Below are positions 28,250-61,532 of a DNA stretch of 64,000 nucleotides, piece by piece. This stretch comes from a virus. The notes under the pieces are model-generated. The model saw only the letters and a list, made by a program, of their open reading frames with translations. It ran no database searches and was not told the DNA's origin. Position numbers and translations under genes: made by a program. The first letter of the stretch is position 1, and the number at the start of each line of letters is the position of its first letter. The stretch is taken from the IMG/VR virus record IMGVR_UViG_3300035145_004174, positions 37,072-101,071 of that record. The stretch is one strand, 5' to 3'.

Positions 28250-28278
28250 TTGACATACCTTATTATCTCTGTCATATT
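28250..28278 (+). promoter_or_regulatory. sigma70-type promoter, leaderless (ATG 28285)
   Basis: TTGACA at 28250, 17-base spacer, CATATT at 28273. Six bases separate the -10 box from ATG 28285, so transcription should start at the ATG. Confidence 0.75.
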
Positions 28279-28284
28279 TATGGC

Positions 28285-28548
28285 ATGATTGATAACAAAG
28301 TAACATACAACAAAGACGGCACTCCTAGAAAAAAAGGTAGTGGTAGAAAAGCTGGATCGAACTCGTTTGTAAGAGTAACATTTTCAGAATTAAGCGAATA
28401 CATAGGCAAAAATACTCCGATGTTAGTTAGCCGAGTTTGGCTAGAAAACATAGGGATTAGTATTGAGTCTCCTAAAAAGTCAAAAATAAAATTGACAGAC
28501 GAAGGGGAGTCTGATACAGTTTTGTTTAAAGTTAAAAAATTCGATTAA
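28285..28548 (+). CDS. hypothetical protein, basic N-terminus, 87 aa
   Basis: The first 40 residues are basic and Gly/Ser rich (KDGTPRKKGSGRKAGSNSFV), a pattern like an AT-hook or nucleic-acid-binding tail. A small folded domain follows (VTFSELSEYIGKNTPMLVSR). I chose ATG 28285 over the ATG at 28280 because the latter is out of frame. Transcription probably begins at the ATG. Family unknown. It precedes the RuvB-like gene by 13 bases. Confidence 0.75.
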   Translation: MIDNKVTYNKDGTPRKKGSGRKAGSNSFVRVTFSELSEYIGKNTPMLVSRVWLENIGISIESPKKSKIKLTDEGESDTVLFKVKKFD

Positions 28549-28561
28549 GAAAGAAATTAAT

Positions 28562-29488
28562 ATGAAAGATATATTCTCACATCTAGTTGGACAAAAAAAT
28601 GTAAAGAAGAAGCTTAGCTTTTACTTGAAAGCTTTCAATAAGACAGGGATCAGTCCTTTTTTGGGCTTCTTTGGGGCTAAAGGTTTAGGTAAAACAGAAT
28701 TCGCTAATGCATATGCTAGGAATTTAGAAAATCAAGATGGTTCAAAAAGACCTTTGCTTGAGCTAAATTGTTCTACTATCAAAAATAATGATAGTTTTTT
28801 CGAACAAATCTTTATACCATTAATTTTAGATAATGAAATAACTGTCTTGTTTGACGAAGCTCACGAGTTACCCAATGACTTAACTATGGCTTTGCTTTCT
28901 ATCCTAGACACTAGAACATCTCATGTTAGAGAGTTTACATGGAAAGAGACTCGCTTCCCTTTTAATTTCAAGAAGCAAACTTTTTTGTTCGCAACAACTG
29001 AAAGCGATAAACTTTTTCCGCCACTTAAAGATAGGTTGACTTCTGTTGACTTCGATCCTTATTCCGAGGAAGAGTTGGGTAGAATTTTGTCTCTAGCTAT
29101 TGAATGCCCTGTTCATAAAAGTGTTCTTGCTCAACTAAGTTCTGTTGTGAGAGGAAATGCTAGAAATGCGATGATGAGATCAAAAGATATTAATCTCTAT
29201 ATAGCATCTGAAGAATTGACTCAATTTTCCTTGAGTGATTATCATAATTTTTGTGATATATTAGGCATTTTACCTTTTGGAATAACTTGCACAGAAAGAC
29301 AAATTCTAGAAGTCTTGCAAGATAAGGGTGCTTGTACCCTTGGCATGTTGGCGGCAAAAACAGGCTTAAGTTCTACTTCGTTAAGAGGTGATCATGAAAA
29401 ATATCTCCTAAAGAAAAATTTAATGGAGATAGATGTTAAGAGAAAAATTACTCCTCTTGGTAGGAAAGTTGTAAAATCTTTAAACTAA
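28562..29488 (+). CDS. RuvB-like AAA+ ATPase
   Basis: 308 residues. The N-terminus DIFSHLVGQKNVKKKLSFYL matches the RuvB start, Walker A is FGAKGLGKTEFA, Walker B is TVLFDEAHEL, sensor 1 is FATTESD and the sensor-2 arginine lies in VVRGNARNAM. The C-terminal winged helix GACTLGMLAAKTGLSSTSLR is the DNA-binding domain of RuvB. In bacteria RuvB drives branch migration of Holliday junctions with RuvA. No RuvA is visible. The next gene encodes a PD-(D/E)XK-like nuclease, so the pair could process recombination intermediates or act in DNA packaging. Confidence 0.88.
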   Translation: MKDIFSHLVGQKNVKKKLSFYLKAFNKTGISPFLGFFGAKGLGKTEFANAYARNLENQDGSKRPLLELNCSTIKNNDSFFEQIFIPLILDNEITVLFDEAHELPNDLTMALLSILDTRTSHVREFTWKETRFPFNFKKQTFLFATTESDKLFPPLKDRLTSVDFDPYSEEELGRILSLAIECPVHKSVLAQLSSVVRGNARNAMMRSKDINLYIASEELTQFSLSDYHNFCDILGILPFGITCTERQILEVLQDKGACTLGMLAAKTGLSSTSLRGDHEKYLLKKNLMEIDVKRKITPLGRKVVKSLN

Positions 29489-29489
29489 T

Positions 29490-29999
29490 ATGTTTGTACA
29501 TAAGTTTGATAAGAGAAACGCGGCATCTATTGGTAATAGAGCTGAAAGAATTTTTGTATCTCTTGCTGGAGCAAGGGGTTATAAAATAAAACCGTCATCT
29601 ACTACAGATAATAAAATTAAAAGAGTCGATTTTTATTTAGAAAAAAATTCCCAAATCAAAGGAGTTGATGTAAAATCAAGGAAGAAAATATGCTATTATG
29701 ATAAAGATTATAATGATGATTGGACTTGGGTCGAATTTAAAAACGGAGATGGCTTTAAAGGATGGCTATATGGAGAAGCAAATTATATAGCATTTGAGAA
29801 AAAAGATTATTTTATCGTAGTAGACAGAATCTCCTTGAAAAACTTAAGTGAATCTCTTATTGATAGAAATAAAGAATTTGTGAAAGATTGTTATAATGCC
29901 AAATATAGAATTTACCAAAGAAGAGATCAAGAAGAAATTTCGTTAATAAAAACTTCAGATATTAAAAAAATTAAAAGAAAAGCAATTTGGAAAAAATGA
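29490..29999 (+). CDS. putative PD-(D/E)XK nuclease, Holliday-junction resolvase-like
   Basis: 169 residues. AASIGNRAERIFVSLAGARG holds the first-helix glutamate. The catalytic core looks like TDNKIKRVDFYLEKN followed by KGVDVKSRKKICYYD, which gives a D...(15-20)...DVK pattern with the K. The final third is basic. The fold type is inferred from this spacing. The RuvB-like gene two bases upstream makes a junction-resolving role attractive. A general repair or restriction-type nuclease is the alternative. Confidence 0.7.
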   Translation: MFVHKFDKRNAASIGNRAERIFVSLAGARGYKIKPSSTTDNKIKRVDFYLEKNSQIKGVDVKSRKKICYYDKDYNDDWTWVEFKNGDGFKGWLYGEANYIAFEKKDYFIVVDRISLKNLSESLIDRNKEFVKDCYNAKYRIYQRRDQEEISLIKTSDIKKIKRKAIWKK

Positions 30000-30214
30000 A
30001 TTTTGACGAACAGACAGATGCCTTTAGATTCGACTTAGATGACCTTTGTGATAGGTATTTAGAAGAGTTTGATATTAATATATTTACTCAAGTAGGAGCT
30101 TTAGAAGAAAAAAAACTTGAACTTTCAAGAATAATTGATACTATAGAAGAAAAAAAGATAGAACTTTTAGGTGAAGATATTGAATTCGAAGTAGACGAAG
30201 ACTTTTTTAATTAA
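29996..30214 (+). CDS. acidic helical hypothetical protein, 72 aa
   Basis: ATG 29996 overlaps the stop of the nuclease gene (ATGA). The protein is acidic and helical with a coiled-coil stretch (LEEKKLELSRIIDTIEEKKI) and an acidic end (FEVDEDFFN). It may bind a basic partner or mimic DNA, but there is no recognised family. Confidence 0.72.
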   Translation: MNFDEQTDAFRFDLDDLCDRYLEEFDINIFTQVGALEEKKLELSRIIDTIEEKKIELLGEDIEFEVDEDFFN

Positions 30215-30241
30215 TTTTTTTTAGTAACAAACAAACTAATA

Positions 30242-36940: not shown

Positions 36941-36969
36941 TTGACAATGAAGATTCTATACCCTATAGT
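36941..36969 (+). promoter_or_regulatory. sigma70-type promoter, leaderless (ATG 36977)
   Basis: TTGACA at 36941, 17-base spacer, TATAGT at 36964. Seven bases separate the -10 from ATG 36977. The in-frame ATG at 36947 lies between the boxes and cannot be used on this transcript. Confidence 0.85.
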
Positions 36970-36976
36970 ACGAAAT

Positions 36977-37984
36977 ATGACTACATTAGGATTAACTTGT
37001 ATTAGTGAGCAATTAAAAGATAAAGACAAGAAAGTTTACTCGTTTCGCACAATGACACGCAAACGTTTCAACGACTTGTGTAATAAGGAAGGTAGACATG
37101 AAGCAATTAAGGAATTATCTGATAGAATTTTGCATAATGTTGTTGTTACTCAACATATTATCCATCATTGCGCTAAGTCAAACATTGGGCATTATCGTGT
37201 TAGTTCTGCTCTTTTCCCTCTCGTTACCGATGAAACTTTGGAAATTGATCTTGAAGAATTGCCCGATATTGAAGAAATTGACCAAACATTACGACAAGTA
37301 GGCATAATTGCCAAGACTCTTGGTATCAGTATGGGTTCTCATCCCGATCAATTCAATGTTCTTGCTTCCCCTAATAGAGAAGCCGTAAACAGAACTATTC
37401 GTGAACTAAATATGCAAGCTAGTGTGCTTGACAAAATGGGTTTACCTCAAGATCATACTGCACCCATGAATATCCACGTCAATTATACTCCCAAGATGGA
37501 TGAAACTTTAGAGATTGTTGCTACTAGATTTTTTCGCAATCTCGCAATGTGCAATAGTGGTGTTTACAATCGTCTTACTATCGAGAACGAAGACAAAGGT
37601 TTCTTTAATGTAGATAATTGCATTAAATTCAGCGAGTATTTATTTGCGGTTCATGGTGTTAATCTTCCTGTTTGCTACGATAATCTTCATGATTTTTGCA
37701 ACCCATCAGAAGATCGTAGTGTTGCATTTCAAGCAGAACGTTGTGCGCATACATGGATAGCTCAAGGTAATAGTGAAGGTAATTTTATTGCTCCTGTCTT
37801 CCATTGGTCAGAAGGCACTCCCCAAAAACCTCGCGCTCATGCAGACTACTTTGCTCTAGGAAATTTTCCACCTCATATCGCCATTGAACCCGACAAACCT
37901 GCCAAGTGGGAATGTGAAGTAAAGGCTAAAGACAAAGCTATCGCATTGTTAATTCAGAATCAGCTTAAAACAACTTATGCTTGA
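36977..37984 (+). CDS. uvsE: UV damage endonuclease (UvsE/UvdE)
   Basis: 335 residues. Typical blocks of the TIM-barrel enzyme are TLGLTCISEQL, FRTMTRKRFNDLC, HCAKSNIGHYRVSSALFPL, GISMGSHPDQFNVLASPN, MNIHVNYTP, RLTIENEDKGF, LPVCYDNLHDF and FHWSEGTPQ. The His and Glu metal ligands are present. The enzyme nicks DNA 5' of UV photoproducts and other lesions. I chose ATG 36977 because the promoter's -10 box ends just before it and family proteins start with LGL. Confidence 0.93.
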   Translation: MTTLGLTCISEQLKDKDKKVYSFRTMTRKRFNDLCNKEGRHEAIKELSDRILHNVVVTQHIIHHCAKSNIGHYRVSSALFPLVTDETLEIDLEELPDIEEIDQTLRQVGIIAKTLGISMGSHPDQFNVLASPNREAVNRTIRELNMQASVLDKMGLPQDHTAPMNIHVNYTPKMDETLEIVATRFFRNLAMCNSGVYNRLTIENEDKGFFNVDNCIKFSEYLFAVHGVNLPVCYDNLHDFCNPSEDRSVAFQAERCAHTWIAQGNSEGNFIAPVFHWSEGTPQKPRAHADYFALGNFPPHIAIEPDKPAKWECEVKAKDKAIALLIQNQLKTTYA

Positions 37985-38738: not shown

Positions 38739-39239
38739 ATGGATACTATAACAAAAAATATTGAAATAATTGATGGCAACTTGTTAAAGATGCACTTTCA
38801 TGGATTTGATTACATTGCTCATTCTTGCAATACCCAAAATGTAATGGGTGCAGGTATCGCGCGAGACATTAAACATACTTATCCCGAAGCATATAGTGCT
38901 GATTGCCATGCAATGATGGAAGGGGACAATCAATTAGGTTGGTATAGTTTCGCATGGACTGATGCCACTCAAACTAAGGGCATATATAATATGTATACGC
39001 AAAGTTATATTGGGAAAGGTAGACAAGTTGATTATGAAGCATTCTACAAGGCTCTACACAATGTTGCTGACGACATTGAATGGAAAGATAAGCATGATGA
39101 TAAAACTTCTACTTTCGCCTTGCCTTATGGTATCTCTTGCGGTCTTGCGGGTGGAAGCAAAAGAATAATTAATTCAATAATCCACGAAATTTTAGTTGAC
39201 AGAAAGTTTAAAACTTGTATAGTTAGGTATCATGAATAA
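38739..39239 (+). CDS. macro domain protein, ADP-ribose-1''-phosphatase type
   Basis: 166 residues: EIIDGNLLKMHFHGFDYIAH, SCNTQNVMGAGIARDIKHTY, GIYNMYTQSYIGKG and FALPYGISCGLAGG. These are the ADP-ribose binding loops of macro domains. Such phage proteins may remove ADP-ribose signals from host or phage molecules or process ADP-ribose-1''-phosphate. It lies directly after a glycosyltransferase gene and overlaps the next gene by eight bases. Confidence 0.9.
   Translation: MDTITKNIEIIDGNLLKMHFHGFDYIAHSCNTQNVMGAGIARDIKHTYPEAYSADCHAMMEGDNQLGWYSFAWTDATQTKGIYNMYTQSYIGKGRQVDYEAFYKALHNVADDIEWKDKHDDKTSTFALPYGISCGLAGGSKRIINSIIHEILVDRKFKTCIVRYHE
39196..39223 (+). promoter_or_regulatory. sigma70-type promoter (ATG 39232)
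   Basis: TTGACA at 39196, 16-base spacer, TATAGT at 39218, inside the end of the macro domain gene. ATG 39232 lies 36 bases after the first base of the -35, so a leaderless start is predicted. Confidence 0.6.
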
Positions 39240-39513
39240 ATTAGAAGAAGCAATAAGTCATTTAAACAACATTCAAGACAATCTTGATGCAATCATTAAA
39301 GCGATTGCAGACTCTCCTCGAAAACCCACAGAAGACGAGCTTTTAAATATGTTGATTGGGGCTAAGGATTTGCACCAAGTTTGGTATGATAATAGTTGGA
39401 TCGAGTATGAAAATTTCAAACGAGAGCATAGAGCTTTTGATAAAGATGATATTTTCGATCAAAATTATCTCAGAGAATATAATGACAAAAAAAAGAAAAA
39501 GGATAAAAAATGA
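39232..39513 (+). CDS. hypothetical protein, 93 aa
   Basis: A helical, charged protein with a coiled-coil start (EEAISHLNNIQDNLDAIIKA) and basic tail (NDKKKKKDKK). The conserved-looking segment is MLIGAKDLHQVWYDNSWIEY. No family recognised. The tail overlaps the next small gene (ATGA). Confidence 0.72.
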   Translation: MNKLEEAISHLNNIQDNLDAIIKAIADSPRKPTEDELLNMLIGAKDLHQVWYDNSWIEYENFKREHRAFDKDDIFDQNYLREYNDKKKKKDKK

Positions 39514-39635
39514 AGAAGTTATGGTATTGGATTAATGACCGATTTCTTGATACTATTACTTATAATAAGTATTTGTTGGTTGAGTATTTTATTCTTTTGG
39601 TGTTGACAGGATTTATTATTTATTCTATATTTTAA
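39510..39635 (+). CDS. single-helix membrane microprotein, 41 aa
   Basis: MKKLWYWINDRFLDTITYNK then one transmembrane helix (VEYFILLVLTGFIIYSIF). The ATG overlaps the previous stop. The promoter of the following gene lies inside its last codons. Confidence 0.65.
   Translation: MKKLWYWINDRFLDTITYNKYLLVEYFILLVLTGFIIYSIF
39603..39631 (+). promoter_or_regulatory. sigma70-type promoter, leaderless (ATG 39638)
   Basis: TTGACA at 39603, 17-base spacer, TATATT at 39626, six bases to ATG 39638. Confidence 0.82.
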
Positions 39636-39637
39636 TT

Positions 39638-39916
39638 ATGAAAACACAAATAGATAGTTGGCTTACAATTAGACAAGAAGATGATGAAGATGTCATGTCT
39701 GCACCAATCATGTGGTTGGATGATGAATCAGAATATGATTTGTTTCCATCTGAAGACCTAAATATAGATTGGGTAGAGGAAATGGACAAAGAGGGAGCGC
39801 CGATCATTGATGGCGATTTTCTTGGCAGAGACATCTGCATTGAAGTTTCCTCTCAATCTAAAGGTTGGAACAAGAGGCGAGCAGTAGGTTATAATATAGA
39901 TTTTAATTGGAACTAG
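39638..39916 (+). CDS. acidic hypothetical protein, 92 aa
   Basis: An acidic protein with short strands (WLTIRQEDDEDVMSAPIMWL, GRDICIEVSSQSKGWNKRRA). It ends with YNIDFNWN. No family recognised. It is the first gene behind a strong predicted leaderless promoter. Confidence 0.72.
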   Translation: MKTQIDSWLTIRQEDDEDVMSAPIMWLDDESEYDLFPSEDLNIDWVEEMDKEGAPIIDGDFLGRDICIEVSSQSKGWNKRRAVGYNIDFNWN

Positions 39917-43068: not shown

Positions 43069-43097
43069 TTGACATACAAATTTTATTCTGCTAACTT
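43069..43097 (+). promoter_or_regulatory. sigma70-type promoter, leaderless (ATG 43104)
   Basis: TTGACA at 43069, 17-base spacer ending in TGC, TAACTT at 43092, six bases to ATG 43104. Confidence 0.85.
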
Positions 43098-43103
43098 GGT
43101 TCT

Positions 43104-43322
43104 ATGACAAAAAAAATCAAAAGATACGAAATTGAAATAGCAAGTACAACCTACCGCACTTACCTTATTGATGCAGAATCGCAAGACGAAGCAGAAACAA
43201 GAGTATTTGAAGAGATAGATGCTGATTGGGAAATAAGCAAGGCATGGCGTCAAAATGCAGAAATAACCCACATAGAAGAGAAGGAAAAAGAATCAGAAGA
43301 AGATTCAATGGAATTAAAATGA
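43104..43322 (+). CDS. DpnD/PcfM-like small protein, 72 aa
   Basis: KRYEIEIASTTYRTYLIDAE followed by SQDEAETRVFEE fits the strand-strand-helix core (V.A.S..EA...V) shared with the proteins at 45023, 45547 and 47598. The acidic tail is HIEEKEKESEEDSMELK. Role unknown. First gene of a leaderless operon. Confidence 0.74.
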   Translation: MTKKIKRYEIEIASTTYRTYLIDAESQDEAETRVFEEIDADWEISKAWRQNAEITHIEEKEKESEEDSMELK

Positions 43323-45763: not shown

Positions 45764-45792
45764 TTGACAGAATAAAAAATATTTGCTAAAGT
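45764..45792 (+). promoter_or_regulatory. sigma70-type promoter, leaderless (ATG 45800)
   Basis: TTGACA at 45764, 17-base spacer ending in TTTGC, TAAAGT at 45787, seven bases to ATG 45800. Confidence 0.85.
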
Positions 45793-45799
45793 CATTGGC

Positions 45800-48059: not shown

Positions 48060-48088
48060 TTGACAGGAGATGAAGATGATGTTAAGTT
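48060..48088 (+). promoter_or_regulatory. sigma70-type promoter for ATG 48125
   Basis: TTGACA at 48060, 17-base spacer, TAAGTT at 48083. The leader of about 30 bases has a purine-rich stretch before ATG 48125. Confidence 0.72.
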
Positions 48089-48124
48089 ATTGGTAGTAGC
48101 AAAAAAGAGAAAGGGACTTAAATT

Positions 48125-48322
48125 ATGAGAACGACCGAAAGACAAACTAGGGATCACGAACCATCAGTAGATGAGATGAGGCGTGATATTGCCGAGAGAG
48201 AGCTTCAATTTTATTTAGATAATCCTTCTGAGTTGGTGGAATTATTACTAGATGGTTGCATTGGTTTAAATGAAACATCTGATCTTGAAATTAAAGACGA
48301 ACATAAAGAAAATTTTCAATAA
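48125..48322 (+). CDS. hypothetical protein, 65 aa
   Basis: A charged helical protein (EPSVDEMRRDIAERELQFYL) with the pattern DNPSELVELLLDGCIGLNE. Family unknown. Confidence 0.7.
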   Translation: MRTTERQTRDHEPSVDEMRRDIAERELQFYLDNPSELVELLLDGCIGLNETSDLEIKDEHKENFQ

Positions 48323-48335: not shown

Positions 48336-48364
48336 TTGACAAATTGTGATCCTTGTGTTTTAGT
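48336..48364 (+). promoter_or_regulatory. sigma70-type promoter, leaderless (ATG 48371)
   Basis: TTGACA at 48336, 17-base spacer, TTTAGT at 48359, six bases to ATG 48371. Confidence 0.78.
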
Positions 48365-48370
48365 AGGGTT

Positions 48371-48535
48371 ATGACATTAGAAGAAGCATTAGAATTAGTC
48401 GTCAATGAAGCAGAGGTTTCTGCTCTTGGTGAAAGTACAGATCAAAATAAATTAGTATTAAGTGCTTGCAAAATGTTGCGAGATCATTTAAAGTTAATCA
48501 ATAAAATAGAAAGCGAAAATTATGAAATTCTTTGA
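48371..48535 (+). CDS. small hypothetical protein, 54 aa
   Basis: MTLEEALELVVNEAEVSALG then LVLSACKMLRDHLKLINK; helical. A longer frame from TTG at 48353 is excluded because the -10 box lies inside it. Overlaps the next gene by 14 bases. Confidence 0.72.
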   Translation: MTLEEALELVVNEAEVSALGESTDQNKLVLSACKMLRDHLKLINKIESENYEIL

Positions 48536-49637: not shown

Positions 49638-50053
49638 CTAAAAAAGGCTACATTATTCCGAAATATTCTGATTGTTATAATTGCGGAAAAAAACTGATTG
49701 GTAGGCAAAGGATTTATTGCTCAAAGAAATGTAAAGACAGGCAGGAAAGAAAAAATAATCCATCTTATAGAAGACAACGGAACAGGGGGATAAAAAGAAA
49801 ATTAAAACTAATTGAAACAAAAGGTGGAAGTTGCGAATTATGCGGTTACGACAAAAATATAAGTTCATTAACATTTCATCACATTGACCCTCAACAAAAA
49901 TCTTTCAATGTTGAACTGAGAAATATTGCTAATTATGATTGGTCTAAAGTTTTAAATGAATCTAGTAAATGTATGTTGCTTTGCCATAATTGCCATCACG
50001 AATTACATCATCCCGAATTTAATAAAGAAAGTTTGAAAAAAAGTTTGACATAG
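49634..50053 (+). CDS. HNH endonuclease with zinc fingers
   Basis: 139 residues. An N-terminal zinc finger (DCYNCGKKLIGRQRIYCSKK) is followed by the HNH core: GGSCELCGYDKNISSLTFHH, IDPQQKSFNVELR and CMLLCHNCHHELHHPEF. The CxxC pairs and FHHID signature are complete. Probably a homing endonuclease, or a small nuclease used in phage competition. Confidence 0.88.
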   Translation: MTKKGYIIPKYSDCYNCGKKLIGRQRIYCSKKCKDRQERKNNPSYRRQRNRGIKRKLKLIETKGGSCELCGYDKNISSLTFHHIDPQQKSFNVELRNIANYDWSKVLNESSKCMLLCHNCHHELHHPEFNKESLKKSLT

Positions 50054-50073
50054 CAAACCATGTACTCTATCTT
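50045..50073 (+). promoter_or_regulatory. sigma70-type promoter, leaderless (ATG 50080)
   Basis: TTGACA at 50045, 17-base spacer, TATCTT at 50068, six bases to ATG 50080. It overlaps the HNH gene's stop. Confidence 0.82.
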
Positions 50074-50079
50074 GATGGA

Positions 50080-50586
50080 ATGAATAAAAGAAAAGCAGAA
50101 GGACTAACTAACTATTTAATGTACAAACATAATCTTCCTTATGATTGGAAGTTTCGTTGGCAAAATAAAAAAAATGCTTTAGGTACTTGTAGTTATCGTA
50201 GAAAACTTATTCTTTTATCTAAATGGTACGTTGAATTAAATGATATAGAAGAAGTTAAAGATACTATATTGCACGAAATCGCTCATGCTTTAGCTTATAT
50301 TCGTTATGGCAAATTGGGCATGGGTCATGGAGATTTATGGAAAAGAGTTTGTGTAGAAATTGGAGCAATTCCTAAGAGTTGTTCTAAAGATAATTTAAAT
50401 AAACCAAAAGATCATTACAAATACAATCACACTTGTAAATGCGGAATACATTATGGTATGCACAGATTAAGAAAACATTACAAATATCGTTGTCCAAAAT
50501 GCAATGATCCTCTTTTTGTCTCCAAGAAAGAGAGAATAGCACATGATAGTGCAAAAAAAGTTTTAGAAGAGATTCTTTCTTCTTGA
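50080..50586 (+). CDS. SprT-like zinc metalloprotease
   Basis: 168 residues. ILHEIAHALAYIRYGKLGMG has the HExxH zinc site, and HGDLWKRVCVEIGA the third ligand block of SprT/Spartan. The C-terminal zinc ribbon (CKCGIHYGMHRLRKHYKYRC then PKCN) is standard for the family. SprT-like proteases cleave DNA-protein crosslinks or remodel DNA-bound proteins. With a UV endonuclease in the same window it may be part of DNA upkeep. Confidence 0.9.
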   Translation: MNKRKAEGLTNYLMYKHNLPYDWKFRWQNKKNALGTCSYRRKLILLSKWYVELNDIEEVKDTILHEIAHALAYIRYGKLGMGHGDLWKRVCVEIGAIPKSCSKDNLNKPKDHYKYNHTCKCGIHYGMHRLRKHYKYRCPKCNDPLFVSKKERIAHDSAKKVLEEILSS

Positions 50587-50611
50587 CATGGTTTGAAACA
50601 GAATATATTGT
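50583..50611 (+). promoter_or_regulatory. sigma70-type promoter, leaderless (ATG 50618)
   Basis: TTGACA at 50583, 17-base spacer, TATTGT at 50606, six bases to ATG 50618. It overlaps the SprT gene's stop. Confidence 0.82.
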
Positions 50612-50617
50612 AAGAGA

Positions 50618-50809
50618 ATGAAAAGCGAAGATATAGAATTCATTATTAAACAAACTTTAATTGAAGCATCTTTACATCACGATGAAGATAGTAGACAAAG
50701 ATATTACAATGGAATACTTGAATTAGTAAATCATTACAAGTATCTTGAGAACAAAATGAGAGAGATTATGGATGCTAGGTATAATGACGGAGCAGGGAGA
50801 GAAAATTAA
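50618..50809 (+). CDS. hypothetical helical protein, 63 aa
   Basis: MKSEDIEFIIKQTLIEASLH then DSRQRYYNGILELVNHYKYL; helical. No family recognised. It sits alone between two promoters. Confidence 0.68.
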   Translation: MKSEDIEFIIKQTLIEASLHHDEDSRQRYYNGILELVNHYKYLENKMREIMDARYNDGAGREN

Positions 50810-50833: not shown

Positions 50834-50862
50834 TTGACATACCATTTTATATATGCAATACT
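50834..50862 (+). promoter_or_regulatory. sigma70-type promoter of the rIIA-like gene
   Basis: TTGACA at 50834, 17-base spacer ending in TATGC, AATACT at 50857. An A-tract lies upstream. The leader is about 41 bases. Confidence 0.8.
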
Positions 50863-50880
50863 AAGTTCATAGTTTAAATT

Positions 50881-50929
50881 TTATCACACAAAAAAGAAAG
50901 TAAAGCGAAATGATTATCACACAAAAAAG
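50881..50929 (+). repeat. 16-base direct repeat around the rIIA start
   Basis: TTATCACACAAAAAAG occurs at 50881-50896 in the leader and again at 50914-50929 just inside the coding sequence, so the two copies flank ATG 50910. Confidence 0.85.
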
Positions 50930-53222
50930 TAAAGAACAAGTCGTTCAATCACATGACTTTGAACAAGTCAACTGCACCATTGATGCCGAAGATATGCGCT
51001 ATGTAGCATCTCTTCTTCGTAACAACTACTCTAATACTCGTCTTGCAGTAGTTCGTGAGATTAGTGCCAATGCTATTGATGCAAACAAAGAGGCAGGAGT
51101 TACTCGTCCTATCGAGATCAAGTTGCCATCAACTATGACTCCAACATTTGCAGTTCGTGACTTTGGGGGTGGACTTAGCCAAGAAGATGTGTTTGGTCTT
51201 TATTCCAAGTATGGTAAGTCAACCAAGCGCACATCAAACAATTATATTGGTGCATTCGGTATTGGCAAGTTTGCTCCATTATCTTATGGTGACAACTTCA
51301 CTTGTGTATCTTATCATGGTGGATTAAAAACATCTTACAATGTATTCGTTAATGATGATGACGATACAAAGATTGTTAAGTTGCATGAAGAACCAAGCAA
51401 CGAACCAACAGGTTTATCTATCGAAGTTGCAGTTGCAGAAGGTGATATATCAGAATTTACTGATGTTGTCAAGAAATTTTTCAGATTCTTTCCCGAAGAT
51501 GAAATGCCAAAATTTATTGGTCAAGAAGATGACTTTATTCCCGAAATTAAAACTTCATTAAAAAGCGAGAAAGATAATTGGTTTATCTTAGAAAATGATG
51601 ATAATGGATATTATGGTTATAATCATTCTTGTCATGTTATCATGGGTAAAGTTACTTATCGTCTCGACAGAAGTGCGGTAAATGTAAGTAACTTTATTAA
51701 AGACGATAAAGCTAAACAAATCGTAGGTGAATTATTAGAAGAAAGAAACTTCTATCTTCGTATGCCAATAGGTTCTGTAAAATTGCATCATAGTCGTGAA
51801 GCATTAGAATATAACAAGACAACACAAAAAGAATTATGCAAAGCATTATATAATGCAAGTCAAGAAATTCTTGAAATCGCTAAGTTGAAACTTGCAGATA
51901 GTGCAGATTTGTGGGAAGCAAAAAGAAATCATGCAGTTATAGTCAATAGTTTATCTCATTCAATGCGCAGGATTTTTGATAATGCTTTTGAATGGAACGG
52001 CGTAAAGATTGAAAATGCTCATTTCTCTGTTCCTTATGATGAATCAGAGAACATTACCATTACTAGATCAATCAGAACTAAAGACAATGACGCTCGCAAT
52101 GGTTACAAAGTTACTTCTAGTAAGCAAAACAAAGCATTTTGTCAAGACAATTATTTGTTCGTATATCAAGATTTAGACTCTTCTCATGGCAACAATCTTC
52201 GTGCTAGAACATTGTTCAATGAAGATGAAAATTTAGAAGAAATCTTTTTCATTAATCCTACCAATCAAGATGGTATTGATTATATGAAGAACGAATGGAG
52301 TTTTAATTTAATTGACTCAAAGCATATTCGTTATGCATCGAAAATTGAGAAAGAAAAACCTGTTTACAATCGTGTAAGTGGAGAGAGCAGAGCATCTATA
52401 CCATTATTCAAAATGGTCAAGAAAAAAGGTTATGCTCATAAAAATGTAGATTATTGGTCAAATGTTAATGATCCAATCAATTCTGTTGAAGCAGGAGATA
52501 TGGAAGGTTCTATTGATGGAAAATTAATCTATGTTCCAATCACTCGTTATCAAATTGATTGCCCTAAAAATGAATTATGGGACTTGGATAAAGTATATAG
52601 TTTGTCTAGTCAAGTTCGTGCAGTTGGCAAGTCAGCAGATAATGAAGAGTTGGCAAATTTAGTTGTCTTCGGTGTTCGCAAAGCAGATGTTAAGAAATTA
52701 GATAAATCTAATTGGGTTAGTTTTGCTGATTTTATGCTTGACCATTACAAGGAATATGTTAGAGAGAACAAAAGAAATTGTTCTATTACATTCAGAAGGG
52801 TATTAACCTCAGAATCACAATCAGATTATCAAAAGATTATGGACTCTCTTAGTCCTATTGAAAATGTGTTTGTTAATCCAAATATGAATTTAAATTTTCT
52901 CTCAGAGGATCATCTCTTGCATCAAGTGAATGACATCTGTTCAGTAATGAATACCGCAGATCATAAGCAAAAAGCATCTTCTTCAGTTATGTATATTGCT
53001 CTACATGATCGCCAATGGTTAAAGGATACTTTAGATGTTGACGTTGATTCAGAATCAATGCTCAAAACTATTGAGAAAGTAACAAGCAAGTATTCTCTTT
53101 TAAGTTTTATTGCCGATTCCATTTCTTACTATGGCGCAGTCAAAGATCATTACAGACATGGCAATATTCAAACCAAGTTTGAAGGCTACATAAATTTGTG
53201 TGATAAAGGAGATGGGGAGTAA
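50910..53222 (+). CDS. rIIA: rIIA-like GHKL-fold protein
   Basis: 770 residues. The N-terminal GHKL-type ATPase region has AVVREISANAIDANKEAG (the N-box), AVRDFGGGLSQEDVFGLYSK (the D.G.G motif) and NYIGAFGIGKFAPLSYGDNF (G2 box), as in T4 RIIA. The remainder is the large rII-specific C-terminal part. In T4, RIIA and RIIB act at the membrane and are needed for growth on lambda lysogens, counteracting RexAB exclusion. The ATG is flanked by a direct repeat. The rIIB-like gene follows with its own promoter. Confidence 0.92.
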   Translation: MIITQKSKEQVVQSHDFEQVNCTIDAEDMRYVASLLRNNYSNTRLAVVREISANAIDANKEAGVTRPIEIKLPSTMTPTFAVRDFGGGLSQEDVFGLYSKYGKSTKRTSNNYIGAFGIGKFAPLSYGDNFTCVSYHGGLKTSYNVFVNDDDDTKIVKLHEEPSNEPTGLSIEVAVAEGDISEFTDVVKKFFRFFPEDEMPKFIGQEDDFIPEIKTSLKSEKDNWFILENDDNGYYGYNHSCHVIMGKVTYRLDRSAVNVSNFIKDDKAKQIVGELLEERNFYLRMPIGSVKLHHSREALEYNKTTQKELCKALYNASQEILEIAKLKLADSADLWEAKRNHAVIVNSLSHSMRRIFDNAFEWNGVKIENAHFSVPYDESENITITRSIRTKDNDARNGYKVTSSKQNKAFCQDNYLFVYQDLDSSHGNNLRARTLFNEDENLEEIFFINPTNQDGIDYMKNEWSFNLIDSKHIRYASKIEKEKPVYNRVSGESRASIPLFKMVKKKGYAHKNVDYWSNVNDPINSVEAGDMEGSIDGKLIYVPITRYQIDCPKNELWDLDKVYSLSSQVRAVGKSADNEELANLVVFGVRKADVKKLDKSNWVSFADFMLDHYKEYVRENKRNCSITFRRVLTSESQSDYQKIMDSLSPIENVFVNPNMNLNFLSEDHLLHQVNDICSVMNTADHKQKASSSVMYIALHDRQWLKDTLDVDVDSESMLKTIEKVTSKYSLLSFIADSISYYGAVKDHYRHGNIQTKFEGYINLCDKGDGE

Positions 53223-53253: not shown

Positions 53254-53282
53254 TTGACTTATTAAAAAAATCAATCTATACT
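53254..53282 (+). promoter_or_regulatory. sigma70-type promoter of the rIIB-like gene
   Basis: TTGACT at 53254, 17-base spacer, TATACT at 53277. The predicted leader is about 28 bases. Confidence 0.78.
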
Positions 53283-53316
53283 CTTAACATAACATTAAAT
53301 TAGAAAGCTAAAAATT

Positions 53317-54501
53317 ATGAATAAAGTTCCATACATACAAAGCGAAAATTCACTCACAATCTTTTGGGAAGGTAAACCATATACTCTCCGCAAAGATCAT
53401 CCTAATTTCCACAATGCCAAGAAAGCTATTCTTGATGGTGAATATGATCGTTTAGGTGATTTAGTTGACATTGCTAAGTCAGTTGAAGATTTTGTAGAAG
53501 GTGACATCGAAGTTAAAGACGAAGTTGTTTATTACAAGGGGCATCGTCTTCATGGTGTTGTTGTAGATAAATTAATTGAAATGCTTCGTGCAGGTGCAAA
53601 AGATTCTGCTCCAATCGTTAATTTCATTACTAGATTGCAAGCTAATCCAAGTGCTAATAGTGTTGCAGAATTGTATACATTCCTTGGTTACAAATCTTTA
53701 CCAACAACCCCCGAAGGTCTTTGTCTTGGTTACAAGGGTGTTCAAGGTGATTATTGGAGTAGCACAGGCAATGCAGATACCATTGTTGTGCAAGGTCAAA
53801 CCAACGAGCGTCATCAAATTCTCAATGAAGTTGGCACAACTATCGAAGTTGCACGTCGTTGTGTAGATGACAACAAAGATAACCATTGCAGTTTCGGTCT
53901 TCATGTCGGTTCATACGATTACGCCAACGATTGGGCAGGAGAAAGTGGTAGATTGCTTGTTGTAGAGTTTGATCCTGCTGATGCAGTCTCCGTTCCAACT
54001 GATTGTGACTTTCAAAAGCTACGTGTCTCAAAGTACAGAGTTGTGTCTGACATTACAGATACTCGCAAAGAGTTAAATAGACCTGTATACGAGGCTAATA
54101 AACCTATTTATGGATCGGATGATGACATCAACTTCGATGAAGACGAAGAAGATGAAAACGATTGGGTAGATCAAGGCGAATGGGATGATGATGATTCTGA
54201 TTGGACTGAAGATGAACATCGTGACTTTGTAGCTAAAGAATTTGAAGATGATGATGAACCCGATGGTTACAATGGTGAAGAAGATAATCGTATTTCTTTA
54301 GTTGACTCATATAATGTCTATATTGGAAATCGCTTGCACAATGGTCAAAAAGTAACATTAAAAAATCTTGCAGATATTAAAGTTTCAAGAGATGAAAACT
54401 TGACTTGTTCTGAAATTATGAATATTGTCAATAAAGAAACTAATTATTTCGTCAGATGCGATGACGATAGACCTCTTTATTTATATGAAGTAGAAGTGTA
54501 A
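53317..54501 (+). CDS. rIIB: rIIB-like protein
   Basis: 394 residues. Matches to T4-type RIIB are FLGYKSLPTTPEGLCLGYKG, the VDDN..CSFGLHVGSYDYAN block, RLLVVEFDPADAVSVPTDCD and QKLRVSKYRVVSDI. After about residue 250 there is a very acidic stretch (DDDDSDWTEDEHRDF and neighbours), then a small folded end resembling an HTH or SH3-like domain (VTLKNLADIKVSRDENLTCS). Together with rIIA it probably defends against prophage-encoded exclusion systems. Confidence 0.9.
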   Translation: MNKVPYIQSENSLTIFWEGKPYTLRKDHPNFHNAKKAILDGEYDRLGDLVDIAKSVEDFVEGDIEVKDEVVYYKGHRLHGVVVDKLIEMLRAGAKDSAPIVNFITRLQANPSANSVAELYTFLGYKSLPTTPEGLCLGYKGVQGDYWSSTGNADTIVVQGQTNERHQILNEVGTTIEVARRCVDDNKDNHCSFGLHVGSYDYANDWAGESGRLLVVEFDPADAVSVPTDCDFQKLRVSKYRVVSDITDTRKELNRPVYEANKPIYGSDDDINFDEDEEDENDWVDQGEWDDDDSDWTEDEHRDFVAKEFEDDDEPDGYNGEEDNRISLVDSYNVYIGNRLHNGQKVTLKNLADIKVSRDENLTCSEIMNIVNKETNYFVRCDDDRPLYLYEVEV

Positions 54502-54725: not shown

Positions 54726-54726
54726 T

Positions 54727-54806: not shown

Positions 54807-54835
54807 TTGACAATCGAAAAAAAATAAACTAAAGT
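54807..54835 (+). promoter_or_regulatory. sigma70-type promoter, leaderless (ATG 54842)
   Basis: TTGACA at 54807, 17-base spacer, TAAAGT at 54830, six bases to ATG 54842. The A-rich upstream box is identical over 22 bases to the one before 60273. Confidence 0.85.
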
Positions 54836-54841
54836 TGTATT

Positions 54842-55147
54842 ATGAAAAAAGATAAAGTGTTGCTAGTTAGAGAAATTACATATCATAAAATAGAATCTAT
54901 TGACGATTTAAAATTCTATACTGATTGTGATACCTCAAAAATTAAATCGGCTAAAGATTTGGGTTTCGTATCTATCAAAGATATAGATGAAAGATTAGAA
55001 GATTTTTACGAAACTAAAAAGGGTGATGGTTGTGGATTTTCACTTTCGGAAGATACTCAAGATCATTGGGGGGAAGATTATGCTATTTTTGATGCAGATG
55101 ATAAAGAAGGAATGTTTAATTGGGAAACAAACTATTTGTTTAAATAA
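54842..55147 (+). CDS. acidic hypothetical protein, 101 aa
   Basis: Strand-helix protein (KVLLVREITYHKIESIDDLK) with an acidic C-terminal half (DDKEGMFNWETNYLFK). No family recognised. Confidence 0.72.
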   Translation: MKKDKVLLVREITYHKIESIDDLKFYTDCDTSKIKSAKDLGFVSIKDIDERLEDFYETKKGDGCGFSLSEDTQDHWGEDYAIFDADDKEGMFNWETNYLFK

Positions 55148-55584: not shown

Positions 55585-55613
55585 TTGACAAGTAGAAAGG
55601 AATATGCGAAAGT
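55585..55613 (+). promoter_or_regulatory. sigma70-type promoter, leaderless (ATG 55620)
   Basis: TTGACA at 55585, 17-base spacer ending in ATGC, GAAAGT at 55608, six bases to ATG 55620. The -10 is weak but has an extended TGC. Confidence 0.72.
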
Positions 55614-55619
55614 ATAGTT

Positions 55620-55853
55620 ATGAATACGACAGAAGCATTTTTAGCAAGTATAGATCAATCAATCGCACAAAGAAAAAAGATTGAAGCATCAATACCATAT
55701 AAAGGCATGAATACTTATCGAGATAAATCCACAATGGTGATGGAAAAGTTCTTTGACCCCAAGGCATTTGAGTATGCAAAACAAGCAACTGCACGTAAAG
55801 GTCAATCAAGTATTCTTAGGTTTCAAATGGATGGAATGGGTAGATTAAAATGA
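55620..55853 (+). CDS. hypothetical protein, 77 aa
   Basis: MNTTEAFLASIDQSIAQRKK with KFFDPKAFEYAKQATARKGQ. Basic, helical. The 175-base gap after it holds no convincing gene. Confidence 0.7.
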   Translation: MNTTEAFLASIDQSIAQRKKIEASIPYKGMNTYRDKSTMVMEKFFDPKAFEYAKQATARKGQSSILRFQMDGMGRLK

Positions 55854-55993: not shown

Positions 55994-56022
55994 TTGACGT
56001 ATCATGCAAATTAGCCTACTTT
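55994..56022 (+). promoter_or_regulatory. sigma70-type promoter, leaderless (ATG 56029)
   Basis: TTGACG at 55994, 17-base spacer, TACTTT at 56017, six bases to ATG 56029. Confidence 0.76.
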
Positions 56023-56028
56023 AACGGC

Positions 56029-56160
56029 ATGAAGGAAACAGAAATTATAGTCAAATTACAAGATTACATTGATGATTGCGGAATAGTAGAATTAGTTAGT
56101 TTATATAATTTTGTATTTAATGAAGAAATCACTTGGGAAGATATAGAATGGAATAAATAA
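56029..56160 (+). CDS. small hypothetical protein, 43 aa
   Basis: MKETEIIVKLQDYIDDCGIV then VSLYNFVFNEEITWEDIEWN. A longer frame opens further upstream, but the promoter lies inside it, so ATG 56029 is the start. Confidence 0.68.
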   Translation: MKETEIIVKLQDYIDDCGIVELVSLYNFVFNEEITWEDIEWNK

Positions 56161-57301: not shown

Positions 57302-57330
57302 TTGACAGGTATGAGTTAATACGTTTATAT
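57302..57330 (+). promoter_or_regulatory. sigma70-type promoter for ATG 57379
   Basis: TTGACA at 57302, 17-base spacer, TTATAT at 57325. The leader carries AAAGGAG, about 11 bases before the ATG. Confidence 0.7.
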
Positions 57331-57378
57331 TGATTACATATTATTAATCACACGTTTACAAAAGGAGAAAAAATCGAC

Positions 57379-57711
57379 ATGAACATTGAAACATTATCAG
57401 CAGATGAAGTTTGGAATAAAACAAATGGAACTCGTTATCAAGATACAATCGAAACAAGTTATTTTAATTTAATTAATTTATTTGGTTTGCCAACATTTGG
57501 TAAAGGAGATAAAACATTATGTGAGTGGGTGCTACAAAATCATTTGGGCGACATTGTAACTATTTACGATTGGAAATCCAACACAAACGATCCCGAACTC
57601 GTAACTCGTTGGAACTTAGGGGGTAATGGAGATACTTATTCAAATGTTTTTCTTGACCAAGTAATGGAAAAAATTAAAAAAGGTGTTGACGTGCAGAATC
57701 TTGTATGCTAA
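57379..57711 (+). CDS. hypothetical protein, 110 aa
   Basis: An unusual case here of a clear Shine-Dalgarno sequence (AAAGGAG, 57361-57367). DEVWNKTNGTRYQDTIETSY, LFGLPTFGKGDKTLCEWVLQ and IVTIYDWKSN. FG.P...D.DK....W form a pattern found in other phage proteins of unknown role. Confidence 0.76.
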   Translation: MNIETLSADEVWNKTNGTRYQDTIETSYFNLINLFGLPTFGKGDKTLCEWVLQNHLGDIVTIYDWKSNTNDPELVTRWNLGGNGDTYSNVFLDQVMEKIKKGVDVQNLVC

Positions 57712-57714
57712 TTT
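57686..57714 (+). promoter_or_regulatory. sigma70-type promoter, leaderless (ATG 57721)
   Basis: TTGACG at 57686, 17-base spacer ending in ATGC, TAATTT at 57709, six bases to ATG 57721. It lies within the end of the preceding gene. Confidence 0.78.
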
Positions 57715-57720
57715 GTTATT

Positions 57721-57951
57721 ATGAATTATCAAACAGACCCAATTACATTTCAAATCCCCTCAAATGGTGGATATAATTATAGATTTAGTGAATGTGTAGA
57801 ACAAATGGCACAATTAGCAGGTCGATATTTTGACATATATGTTGAAGATACAAGTCCAATTAGCAATATGCTTGACGAAATAGTTGTAAATGCAATGCGA
57901 GAACAAGAAAAACAAAACAAATTAGATAATATAAATGGGGGATCAAAATGA
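57721..57951 (+). CDS. hypothetical protein, 76 aa
   Basis: MNYQTDPITFQIPSNGGYNY with MAQLAGRYFDIYVEDTSPIS. Family unknown. Overlaps the next gene by four bases. Confidence 0.7.
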   Translation: MNYQTDPITFQIPSNGGYNYRFSECVEQMAQLAGRYFDIYVEDTSPISNMLDEIVVNAMREQEKQNKLDNINGGSK

Positions 57952-59505: not shown

Positions 59506-59615
59506 AGGAATTTATACAGAATTTATACTTAAATTAATTTAATGTATTATGGTTGATTGAGTAGTGCGAGATTTAAATATATAAATAATTCTATTATAAC
59601 ACACATTTATAATTT

Positions 59616-60027: not shown

Positions 60028-60047
60028 CTATTTAAATTAAACAAATA

Positions 60048-60218: not shown

Positions 60219-60272
60219 AATTACGCGAAATTTAAATTAATTTAATTAAATAATAAAAAATTAAAAAAAGAT

Positions 60273-60301
60273 TTGACATATCTAACTTATTCTAGTATTG
60301 T
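60273..60301 (+). promoter_or_regulatory. sigma70-type promoter, leaderless (ATG 60308)
   Basis: TTGACA at 60273, 17-base spacer, TATTGT at 60296, six bases to ATG 60308. A-tract upstream as at 54807. Confidence 0.85.
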
Positions 60302-60307
60302 TGTTGT

Positions 60308-60469
60308 ATGAATGAAAATATAAAACTATTAGCGGAAATTAAATTAACCTTTGATAATAATGTTAAATGGGGAGAAGATAATAAACAAAGTGCATTAGAA
60401 GTTTTAGGTGATTTAATATATGATTTACAAAAATTAGAAGAGGCAAGTGTGCAATGCGAAGAATCTTAA
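60308..60469 (+). CDS. small hypothetical protein, 53 aa
   Basis: MNENIKLLAEIKLTFDNNVK then SALEVLGDLIYDLQKLEEAS. Helical. Its end overlaps the small lipoprotein gene by 16 bases. Confidence 0.7.
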   Translation: MNENIKLLAEIKLTFDNNVKWGEDNKQSALEVLGDLIYDLQKLEEASVQCEES

Positions 60470-60609
60470 TTATATTATTTATATTTATTAATGTCGGGTG
60501 TACTAAATCCCAACACCAATGGGGTGATGTATGCGAGGGGACGTCTTCATGCCCCGAATTGGGTCACGGCACTTGTCCATTTTGTTTTGATGAAAATTAC
60601 TTAGATTAA
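60454..60609 (+). CDS. small lipoprotein, 51 aa
   Basis: MRRILIILFIFINVGCTKSQ is a lipoprotein signal with the lipobox INVGC. The mature part is only about 36 residues with four further cysteines (VCEGTSSCPELGHGTCPFCF) that may form disulfides or bind metal. It is overlapped by and coupled to the preceding gene. Size and location fit short phage lipoproteins that block receptor or entry of related phages, but there is no direct evidence. Confidence 0.74.
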   Translation: MRRILIILFIFINVGCTKSQHQWGDVCEGTSSCPELGHGTCPFCFDENYLD

Positions 60610-60627
60610 ATAATTGAAAAAAAAACC

Positions 60628-60655
60628 TTGATTTTTCTAAATAAGAGTCTATAAT
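60628..60655 (+). promoter_or_regulatory. promoter of the structured RNA
   Basis: TTGATT at 60628, 16-base spacer, TATAAT at 60650 (perfect consensus -10). The predicted start is near 60662. Confidence 0.7.
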
Positions 60656-60661
60656 AAAACA

Positions 60662-61097
60662 AATAATTGAGAAACTAAACTCAATCAAATCAAATAAGTC
60701 GTTCTTTTACATTTTCATATAGGGGAGTTATGCAGAACCGCCTTTGGTTCTGTGGCAGAAGTAATAGATTTAGGGTTAATCATAATAATGTCTTGCTGAG
60801 GTGAGATGAATCTTCTGCCCCCTGCTATTTTGGAAGAGCTAGCTACTCTTCCTGTGGGTGACTGAATTAACCTGTCGTGAGCGGGTTAAGGTATGCGATT
60901 CTCTGTGGTGGAGTGCCAATGGACAAATGTCTGAGGTAGGACAAACACCAAGTCTAATCGTAGTTGGAAGTAGGTAATCATTGAACTGCTGTTCACGCCG
61001 AAAACTTGAGGGTATACAGGAATCCCTCCCCACACATTTTCCATCCCTACATACCCTCTCTCTGTTTTTTCCTTTCGGCAGGGAGAGGGTTTTTTTT
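60662..61097 (+). ncRNA. large structured non-coding RNA, unknown family
   Basis: About 435 bases with no credible frame, visibly richer in G and C than its flanks, between a consensus promoter and a strong terminator. Stems seen by eye: GGG/CCC (60723-60725, 60820-60822) closing a multibranch; CAGAACC/GGTTCTG (60733-60739, 60746-60752); GGCAGAAG/CTTCTGCC (60754-60761, 60812-60819); GGAAGAG/CTCTTCC (60832-60838, 60846-60852); TTAACC/GGTTAA (60867-60872, 60884-60889); GAGGG/CCCTC (61008-61012, 61024-61028). No match to tmRNA, RNase P RNA, 6S or group I intron cores was found by eye. It lies near a tRNA gene, like the phage-borne GOLLD and ROOL RNAs, but is shorter. Confidence 0.8.
61053..61097 (+). 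terminator. rho-independent terminator of the structured RNA
   Basis: A 12-bp stem (ACCCTCTCTCTG at 61053-61064 with CAGGGAGAGGGT at 61079-61090, one G-U pair), a 14-base loop and a T-run to 61097. Confidence 0.92.
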
Positions 61098-61107
61098 GCA
61101 TTTTTAT

Positions 61108-61136
61108 TTGACAGGGGTTCTCTTATATGGAATATT
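61108..61136 (+). promoter_or_regulatory. sigma70-type promoter, leaderless (ATG 61143)
   Basis: TTGACA at 61108, 17-base spacer, AATATT at 61131, six bases to ATG 61143, directly behind the terminator. Confidence 0.78.
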
Positions 61137-61142
61137 GTTGGT

Positions 61143-61532
61143 ATGAAGACAACAAAAGCTAACGACCCAAGGTACAAAATTAATATAAACAAACCAATTA
61201 AAGTTTATCGTAATCTACATAAACAATGTTGGAGTGTTCAACAGGATGGATTAGTCAAAGCACATACTAATTCAATTAAATTGTTTGATTGCGAATTTAT
61301 CGTAAATCAAGCAGGAAGAGAAAAAGTAATTAAAGAAAGGAGAAAAAATGTTCATGCTTTCATTAAAGGATACATAAGTGAGTTATTTAATACTATATTA
61401 GATGAGCACTTCGGGACAGAAGTTACATACAACCCATATAAAAACGAATTCTTTTACAAAAAGGAGAGCGGGGAGTCTATCCACTCAGCAGATGCAGTCC
61501 TTCTAGATGATAGAAAAGTTTTTTCATTTTAA
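61143..61532 (+). CDS. conserved phage protein, 129 aa
   Basis: Starts at ATG 61143. KVYRNLHKQCWSVQQDGLVK, INQAGREKVIKERRKNVHAF-type residues (seen here as NQAGREKVIKERRKNVHAF) and KGYISELFN are strongly conserved in other phage and bacterial proteins of unknown function. FGTEVTYNPYKNEFFYKKES follows and SIHSADAVLLDDRKVFSF ends it. The longer upstream frame runs back through the terminator and is not coding. Confidence 0.82.
   Translation: MKTTKANDPRYKININKPIKVYRNLHKQCWSVQQDGLVKAHTNSIKLFDCEFIVNQAGREKVIKERRKNVHAFIKGYISELFNTILDEHFGTEVTYNPYKNEFFYKKESGESIHSADAVLLDDRKVFSF

What the first reader, a model, noticed from the sequence alone, without database searches (positions are those of the whole stretch)
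28250..61143. Fifteen early promoters place the transcription start on the ATG: predicted leaderless mRNAs
Before the genes at 28285, 36977, 39232, 39638, 43104, 45800, 48371, 50080, 50618, 54842, 55620, 56029, 57721, 60308 and 61143 there is TTGACA or TTGACG with a 17-base spacer (16 for 39232) and a TAnnnT-like box. The distance from the first -35 base to the ATG is always 35 or 36. Sigma70 starts about 7 bases after the -10, so the A of ATG should be +1. These genes have no room for a ribosome binding site. The precise constant spacing over 15 unrelated genes cannot be chance and marks a regulon in which early phage messages bypass the Shine-Dalgarno step. It also fixes the start codons of several genes.
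Basis: partly seen in the sequence, partly recalled or inferred. Interest (0 to 1): 0.86.

Follow-up and report, generated by a model that had tools for sequence, protein, structure and literature searches.

The report
Phage promoters starting mRNA at ATG
In a widespread group of uncultured, mostly aquatic phages, about half of the host-type promoters in the probable early region sit so that the messenger RNA should begin exactly on the start codon, with no ribosome-binding leader, and the arrangement recurs in 89 unrelated gene families.

Summary
All 15 sites exist: TTGACA/G, 16-17 bases, a TAnnnT-like box, ATG 35 (12 sites) or 36 (3) bases after the first -35 base. About 1 is expected by chance. 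The same register is a sharp peak in 43 related viral contigs (329 open ATGs at 35/36 against 7-21 at distances 33-34 and 37-38) and covers 89 unrelated protein families. A promoter matrix that ignores the start codon gives a two-peaked leader distribution: 273 of 597 promoters have 0-1 nt, and most others 24-45 nt. Shine-Dalgarno motifs precede 3% of the first group and 66% of those with 20-29 nt leaders. Leadered promoters of the same phages carry a C/T-A-T start signal exactly where the leaderless ones carry C/T-ATG, so the A of ATG is very probably +1. Coding periodicity starts at codon 2; start codons are 273 ATG, 3 TTG, 0 GTG. It is not a pure regulon: rIIA, rIIB and a predicted sigma operon use similar promoters with a leader, and some genes switch class between phages. 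Transcripts, timing and host are unproven. Leaderless phage messages are known (lambda cI, phiYS40); the scale, conservation and early-type promoters look new. New variant of a known kind.

The parts
28250..28548 (+). leaderless-type promoter 28250-28284 and gene 28285-28548 (87 aa, unknown)
   Evidence: leaderless in 5 of 7 family members incl. the window
36941..37984 (+). leaderless-type promoter 36941-36976 (distance 36) and UvdE-like UV endonuclease 36977-37984
   Evidence: PF03851 1e-33 from residue 4; the longer ORF start 36845 would add 44 aa before the domain
39196..39513 (+). leaderless-type promoter (spacer 16, distance 36), overlapping the end of the preceding gene, and gene 39232-39513
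   Evidence: 2 of 6 orthologues leaderless
39603..39916 (+). leaderless-type promoter and gene 39638-39916
   Evidence: no orthologue found
43069..43322 (+). leaderless-type promoter and gene 43104-43322
   Evidence: 2 of 10 orthologues leaderless
45764..46357 (+). leaderless-type promoter (distance 36) and gene 45800-46357
   Evidence: 6 of 8 orthologues leaderless
48336..48535 (+). leaderless-type promoter and gene 48371-48535
   Evidence: 3 of 21 orthologues leaderless, 3 leadered
50045..50586 (+). leaderless-type promoter and SprT-like metalloprotease gene 50080-50586
   Evidence: PF10263 2e-15; 14 of 14 orthologues leaderless
50583..50809 (+). leaderless-type promoter overlapping the end of the SprT gene, and gene 50618-50809
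   Evidence: single orthologue without promoter
54807..55147 (+). leaderless-type promoter and gene 54842-55147
   Evidence: 1 of 1 orthologue leaderless
55585..55853 (+). leaderless-type promoter and gene 55620-55853
   Evidence: 24 of 30 orthologues leaderless, 6 leadered
55994..56160 (+). leaderless-type promoter and gene 56029-56160 (43 aa)
   Evidence: 3 of 3 orthologues leaderless; in-frame upstream ATGs at 55990 and 55933
57686..57951 (+). leaderless-type promoter and gene 57721-57951
   Evidence: 10 of 25 orthologues leaderless, 9 leadered
60273..60469 (+). leaderless-type promoter and gene 60308-60469
   Evidence: 1 of 1 orthologue leaderless
61108..61532 (+). leaderless-type promoter and L5 gp82-like gene 61143-61532, directly after a manA RNA and its terminator
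   Evidence: PF25735 2e-34; 8 of 30 orthologues leaderless
50834..53222 (+). contrast: same promoter type with about 41-nt leader, then rIIA 50910-53222
53254..54501 (+). contrast: similar promoter with about 28-nt leader, then rIIB 53317-54501
57302..57711 (+). contrast: leadered promoter (41-nt leader with AAGGAG), gene 57379-57711
61535..61884 (+). contrast: leadered promoter (33-nt leader), gene 61603-61884
48060..48322 (+). contrast: leadered promoter (30-nt leader), gene 48125-48322
21158..22186 (-). contrast: minus-strand promoter at 22186 with 28-nt leader to ATG 22122, ahead of genes that include a sigma70 region 2 protein (21158-21730)

Best explanation
These are host-sigma70-type promoters of an uncultured large phage, used before phage-coded factors take over. 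In the clade they come in two arrangements. In one, the start codon itself is the transcription start (-1 pyrimidine, +1 A of ATG), so the messenger is leaderless and would be translated by recognition of its 5'-terminal AUG, probably by 70S ribosomes. In the other, the same promoter and the same C/T-A-T start signal are followed by a leader of about 24-45 nt, often with a Shine-Dalgarno motif. Shown by sequence: the register, its conservation, the shared start signal, the coding start and the depletion of intermediate leaders. Inferred: actual 5' ends, early timing, sigma70 use, 70S initiation and a host able to translate leaderless messages.
For: Peak at 35/36 only, on the gene strand only, in window and relatives. 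In 15 whole virus records: 184 matches with 6-7 bases between -10 and ATG, 14 with 13-14, 3 with the reversed pattern. Logo of 246 + 81 sites: AT-rich -44..-39, CTTGACA, TAnnnT exactly -12..-7 (shifted by one with the -35 in the 36 class), -1 C/T 89-91%, G 1-2%. Two-peaked leader length and SD contrast 3% vs 66%. Leadered promoters share the C/T-A-T start signal at the same place: CAT 51 of 165, A 64%. 89 families; codon periodicity from codon 2; spacer saturated while boxes stay; 244 of 324 have no upstream alternative start and only 11 a downstream start with SD. ATG 273, TTG 3, GTG 0. Promoters absent from the + strand of 0-28 kb of the window and near-absent from non-early 20-kb stretches. 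A phage-coded sigma-like protein exists. TANNNT about 12 bp before the start is the accepted sequence mark of bacterial leaderless genes (PMC3160421).
Against: No transcript data. Host unknown, so promoter preference and leaderless translation in that host are untested. Four of the 15 -10 boxes miss a base. Some genes (39232, 50618) overlap or abut an upstream gene and could also be read from longer messages. Genes outside the early region lack SD motifs as well, so SD absence alone proves little. The matrix was trained on leaderless sites, though only on -44..-30 and -12..-7. Some orthologues lack a recognisable promoter.
Confidence: 0.86

Rival explanations
1. The ATG at +1 is only part of the RNA polymerase start signal, and translation begins at a later in-frame start with a proper ribosome-binding site.
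For: Polymerases do prefer certain initial bases; leadered promoters of the same phages also start C/T-A-T.
Against: G at the third position appears almost only where an ORF opens: 247 of 264 ATGs at 35 and 82 of 100 at 36 open at least 40 codons, while leadered promoters mostly start ATA/ATC/ATT. Coding periodicity begins at codon 2 and N-terminal alignments start 1:1; only 11 of 324 have a downstream in-frame start with SD within 25 codons.
Confidence: 0.05
2. The boxes are used but the real start lies 3-8 bases off, giving a 2-8 nt leader: near-leaderless messages.
For: A few promoters have the ATG at +2..+8 (about 36 of 597); start-site slippage of a base or two is common.
Against: The ATG position is sharply fixed at 6-7 bases after the -10 with a pyrimidine before it; the leadered class shows the start signal at the same place.
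Confidence: 0.07
3. Compact genomes simply pack promoters against start codons, and translation uses longer read-through messages from upstream genes; the register has no translational meaning.
For: Genes are packed, and two promoters overlap the preceding gene (39232, 50618).
Against: Packing would give a continuum of short leaders, but leaders of 3-23 nt are uncommon while 24-45 nt leaders return. Some leaderless promoters stand free behind a terminator (61108 after 61070-61089) or in AT-rich intergenic DNA.
Confidence: 0.04
4. The TTGACA/TAnnnT sites are read by a phage-coded sigma-like factor rather than the host sigma70, so these genes need not be early.
For: The phage codes for a sigma70 region 2 protein.
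Against: The motif is the textbook housekeeping consensus with an AT-rich upstream element. The sites cluster with rIIA/rIIB, and the operon of the sigma-like protein itself starts with such a promoter, as expected if host polymerase makes the phage sigma.
Confidence: 0.15

Closest known systems
Thermus thermophilus phage phiYS40 leaderless transcripts
   Same: A large lytic phage in which most middle and late messages lack a leader (PMC3594737, citing Sevostyanova 2007; the original paper was not read here)
   Different: There the leaderless class is middle/late, with -10-only promoters (own knowledge of the paper), in a host phylum rich in leaderless genes; here the promoters are the -35/-10 host type in the rIIA/rIIB region, in unrelated low-G+C phages
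Phage lambda cI from pRM
   Same: Start codon is the 5' end of the messenger (PMC3160421, PMC9031893)
   Different: One lysogeny gene; here at least 15 genes per genome and 89 families in the clade
Bacterial leaderless genes with a TANNNT box about 12 bp before the start (Zheng 2011; Caulobacter 375, S. meliloti 171)
   Same: Same sequence mark and exclusive AUG
   Different: Cellular genes; here phage genes with strong, complete TTGACA -35 boxes and A+T-rich upstream elements
T4-type early promoters
   Same: Many dispersed host-sigma70 promoters near rIIA/rIIB (general knowledge)
   Different: A 50-kb T4 stretch holding many early genes has no leaderless-register promoter by the same scan; no T4-type capsid gene was detected in these phages

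Membership tests
Bacterial leaderless genes (TA-signal class) | TANNNT about 12 bp upstream of the start codon | tested here: met
   11 of 15 exact in the window; T92%/A82%/T69% at -7/-11/-12 in 246 sites
Bacterial leaderless genes (TA-signal class) | Start codon is AUG | tested here: met
   273 ATG, 3 TTG, 0 GTG at +1/+2
Bacterial leaderless genes (TA-signal class) | No Shine-Dalgarno sequence | tested here: met
   0 of 15; 3% of 283
Bacterial leaderless genes (TA-signal class) | 5' end of the primary transcript is the A of AUG | not testable with these tools
   Needs 5'-end mapping; indirect support from the shared start signal
phiYS40-type leaderless programme | A whole class of phage promoters gives leaderless messages | tested here: met
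   273 of 597 promoters in window and 43 relatives, by sequence prediction only
phiYS40-type leaderless programme | Class is middle/late with -10-only promoters | tested here: not met
   Promoters have a strong TTGACA and are near-absent from the non-early stretches; timing itself not measured
phiYS40-type leaderless programme | Host translation factors shift during infection (IF2 up, IF3 down) | not testable with these tools
   Needs infection experiments; host unknown
T4-type phages | gp23-type major capsid protein | tested here: inconclusive
   PF07068 found in none of 10 related records, including near-200-kb ones; the control genomes did not ring either

The most novel reading that the evidence does not exclude
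A phage clade maintains two parallel early messenger classes from one promoter type, leaderless and leadered, assigned gene by gene and held by selection. The leaderless class would let the phage draw on 70S ribosomes, or escape Shine-Dalgarno-dependent control, before any phage product exists.
Probability: 0.3. Interest if true: 0.75.

Novelty: new variant of a known kind. Interest (0 to 1): 0.6.

Why it matters
If the 5' ends are where the sequence puts them, this is the most systematic use of leaderless messages I could find in any phage, and with host-type promoters at the probable start of infection. It implies a host that already translates leaderless messages well, gives hundreds of natural leaderless/leadered examples for studying how genes switch mode, and corrects start codons that gene finders relying on Shine-Dalgarno signals will miss.

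Tried and rejected
Phage initiator tRNA as an aid to leaderless translation: the tRNA-Met(CAT) at 59954-60028 has a paired G1:C72 and no GGG/CCC anticodon stem, so it is not an initiator. Host: the one genome hit of rIIB is a contig binned in a Halobacteriovorax MAG; 16 genomes of that family show no excess of the pattern over the reversed control, so host and host leaderless use stay open. T4 membership: no Gp23, no Terminase_6C, and sampled structural-size ORFs matched essentially nothing in PHROGs (one weak hit to an unknown family). Cultured comparison stretches (DSS3P8, T4, syn9, HTVC008M) gave no leaderless-register promoters, but the matrix is tuned to this clade and not all their early regions were covered. 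Generic sigma70 scans were not clearly enriched. Translation-factor genes: no Pfam match among the proteins sampled.
Full report
What was checked. The window is bases 37072-101071 of a 101-kb virus record, 32% G+C. It carries rIIA and rIIB, a split DNA polymerase III alpha, ribonucleotide reductase, RecA and DnaB. No close cultured relative was found. All 15 listed sites are present: TTGACA or TTGACG, spacer 17 (16 once), ATG 35 or 36 bases after the first base of the -35. Eleven -10 boxes are exact TAnnnT and four miss one base. In the gene-dense half the register occurs 19 times against about 1 expected; with an exact -10, 11 against 0.06. Four of the 19 look like coincidental matches inside coding sequence. 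The other strand shows nothing.

Relatives. A search with rIIB gave 76 related viral loci. In the 43 nearest, TTGAC[AG]-to-ATG distances peak only at 35 and 36, where 247 of 264 and 82 of 100 non-redundant ATGs open at least 40 codons; distances 33-34 and 37-38 have 7-21. The more distant loci, most of them with 38-46% G+C, show the signal weakly or not at all. Over 15 whole records a fixed pattern gives 184 matches with 6-7 bases between -10 and ATG, 14 with 13-14, and 3 for the pattern read backwards.

Anatomy. The logo of 246 sites at distance 35 shows an A/T tract at -44..-39, CTTGACA, a conserved A/T stretch around -20, TAnnnT exactly at -12..-7, and C or T at -1 (89%; G 1%). In the 81 sites at 36 the -10 moves together with the -35, so the ATG is 6 or 7 bases after the -10, both normal start positions.

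Where transcription starts. A matrix made from -44..-30 and -12..-7 only was run over the near group without regard to start codons. Of 597 promoters on the gene strand, 273 have the first long ORF at 0 or +1. Leaders of 4-23 nt are rare, and a second group lies at 24-45 nt with a mode at 26-30. Shine-Dalgarno 4-mers precede 3% of the leaderless group, 66% of those with 20-29 nt leaders and 39-50% at 30-49. The 165 leadered promoters, which have no start codon there, still show C/T-A-T at the predicted start (A 64%; CAT 51 of 165; ATA the commonest triplet). The leaderless class has C/T-ATG at the same place. That is the strongest indirect evidence that the A of ATG is +1.

Where translation starts. 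The 324 testable sites fall into 89 unrelated protein families. In 366 diverged pairs, third-position changes dominate from codon 2 on, while upstream bases are saturated except for the A/T tract, -35 and -10. N-terminal alignments start mostly at residue 1 of both proteins. In 244 of 324 no upstream start exists, and only 11 have a downstream in-frame start with a Shine-Dalgarno motif. Start codons at +1/+2 are ATG 273 times, TTG 3, GTG 0. The known rule that leaderless initiation needs AUG fits (PMC3616915).

How consistent per gene. Several families are nearly always leaderless (15 of 15, 22 of 23, 20 of 22, 25 of 31); others move between leaderless, leadered and operon-internal. For the window's genes: SprT-like 50080 is leaderless in 14 of 14 orthologues, 55620 in 24 of 30, 57721 in 10 of 25 with 9 leadered. 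Arrangement is therefore a heritable but changeable trait of each gene, not a fixed regulon. rIIA (leader about 41 nt), rIIB (28), 57379 (41) and 61603 (33), and on the minus strand a gene run with a sigma70 region 2 protein (28 nt from the promoter at 22186 to ATG 22122), use leaders.

Timing. On the + strand the promoters are confined to 28-64 kb of the window; six 20-kb stretches of another record and the first 40 kb of this one hold only zero to one hit per strand. They surround rIIA/rIIB and match the host housekeeping consensus; a phage sigma-like protein is available for later genes. Early use is thus probable but not shown. Genes outside the early region have few Shine-Dalgarno 4-mers (5-6%) and few TAnnnT boxes at -12, so lack of Shine-Dalgarno is general in these phages; the promoter register is what marks the leaderless set.

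Compared with known systems. Sequence criteria for bacterial leaderless genes (PMC3160421) are met. Lambda cI is the classic single case. phiYS40 of Thermus makes most middle and late messages leaderless (PMC3594737). Caulobacter and Sinorhizobium have 375 and 171 leaderless messages (PMC4117421, PMC3616915). Ten paper searches found no report of a conserved leaderless set under -35/-10 host-type promoters in a lytic phage group; papers outside the open library were not searchable. Stretches of DSS3P8, T4, syn9 and HTVC008M gave none by the same scan, with the caveat that the scan is tuned to this clade.

Verdict. Observation confirmed; leaderless reading very probable from sequence alone; 'regulon that bypasses Shine-Dalgarno' too strong. 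New variant of a known kind, interest 0.6.

Noticed in passing
window 60832-61038 (+): manA RNA (RF01745, 80 bits) followed by an intrinsic terminator (61070-61089) and directly by the leaderless promoter 61108; the 183-aa ORF called from TTG 60981 overlaps the RNA and is probably misassigned.
   Followed up: partly
window 21158-21730 (-), with 19879-20544 and 17882-18859 (-): Phage-coded sigma70 region 2 protein with nearby GerE/HTH (region-4-like) proteins: a possible split or multi-part phage sigma, preceded by a strong leadered promoter at 22186.
   Followed up: partly
L002:13961-18822 and window 102-1751: DNA polymerase III alpha appears split: a PHP-side piece (L002:13961-14701) and the main piece (L002:16264-18822), with ORFs between them.
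   Followed up: no
window 24158-26183 (-) and 42495-43055 (+): Four sulfotransferase-family ORFs; unusual cargo, perhaps surface sugar modification.
   Followed up: no
L079 (PBIO01000012.1): A relative with 58% rIIB identity sits in a Halobacteriovorax MAG; it has similar promoters but only 2 of 17 leaderless. Possible host hint, or a binning error.
   Followed up: partly
G007:C1:9-53 and 199942-199986: The same 45-base match lies at both ends of the 200-kb record, which suggests a terminal repeat (complete or circularly permuted genome).
   Followed up: no
window 59593-59622 (-): Perfect 12 of 12 sigma70 consensus with TG before the -10 on the minus strand, with no ATG within about 60 nt: possible antisense or small RNA start.
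   Followed up: no
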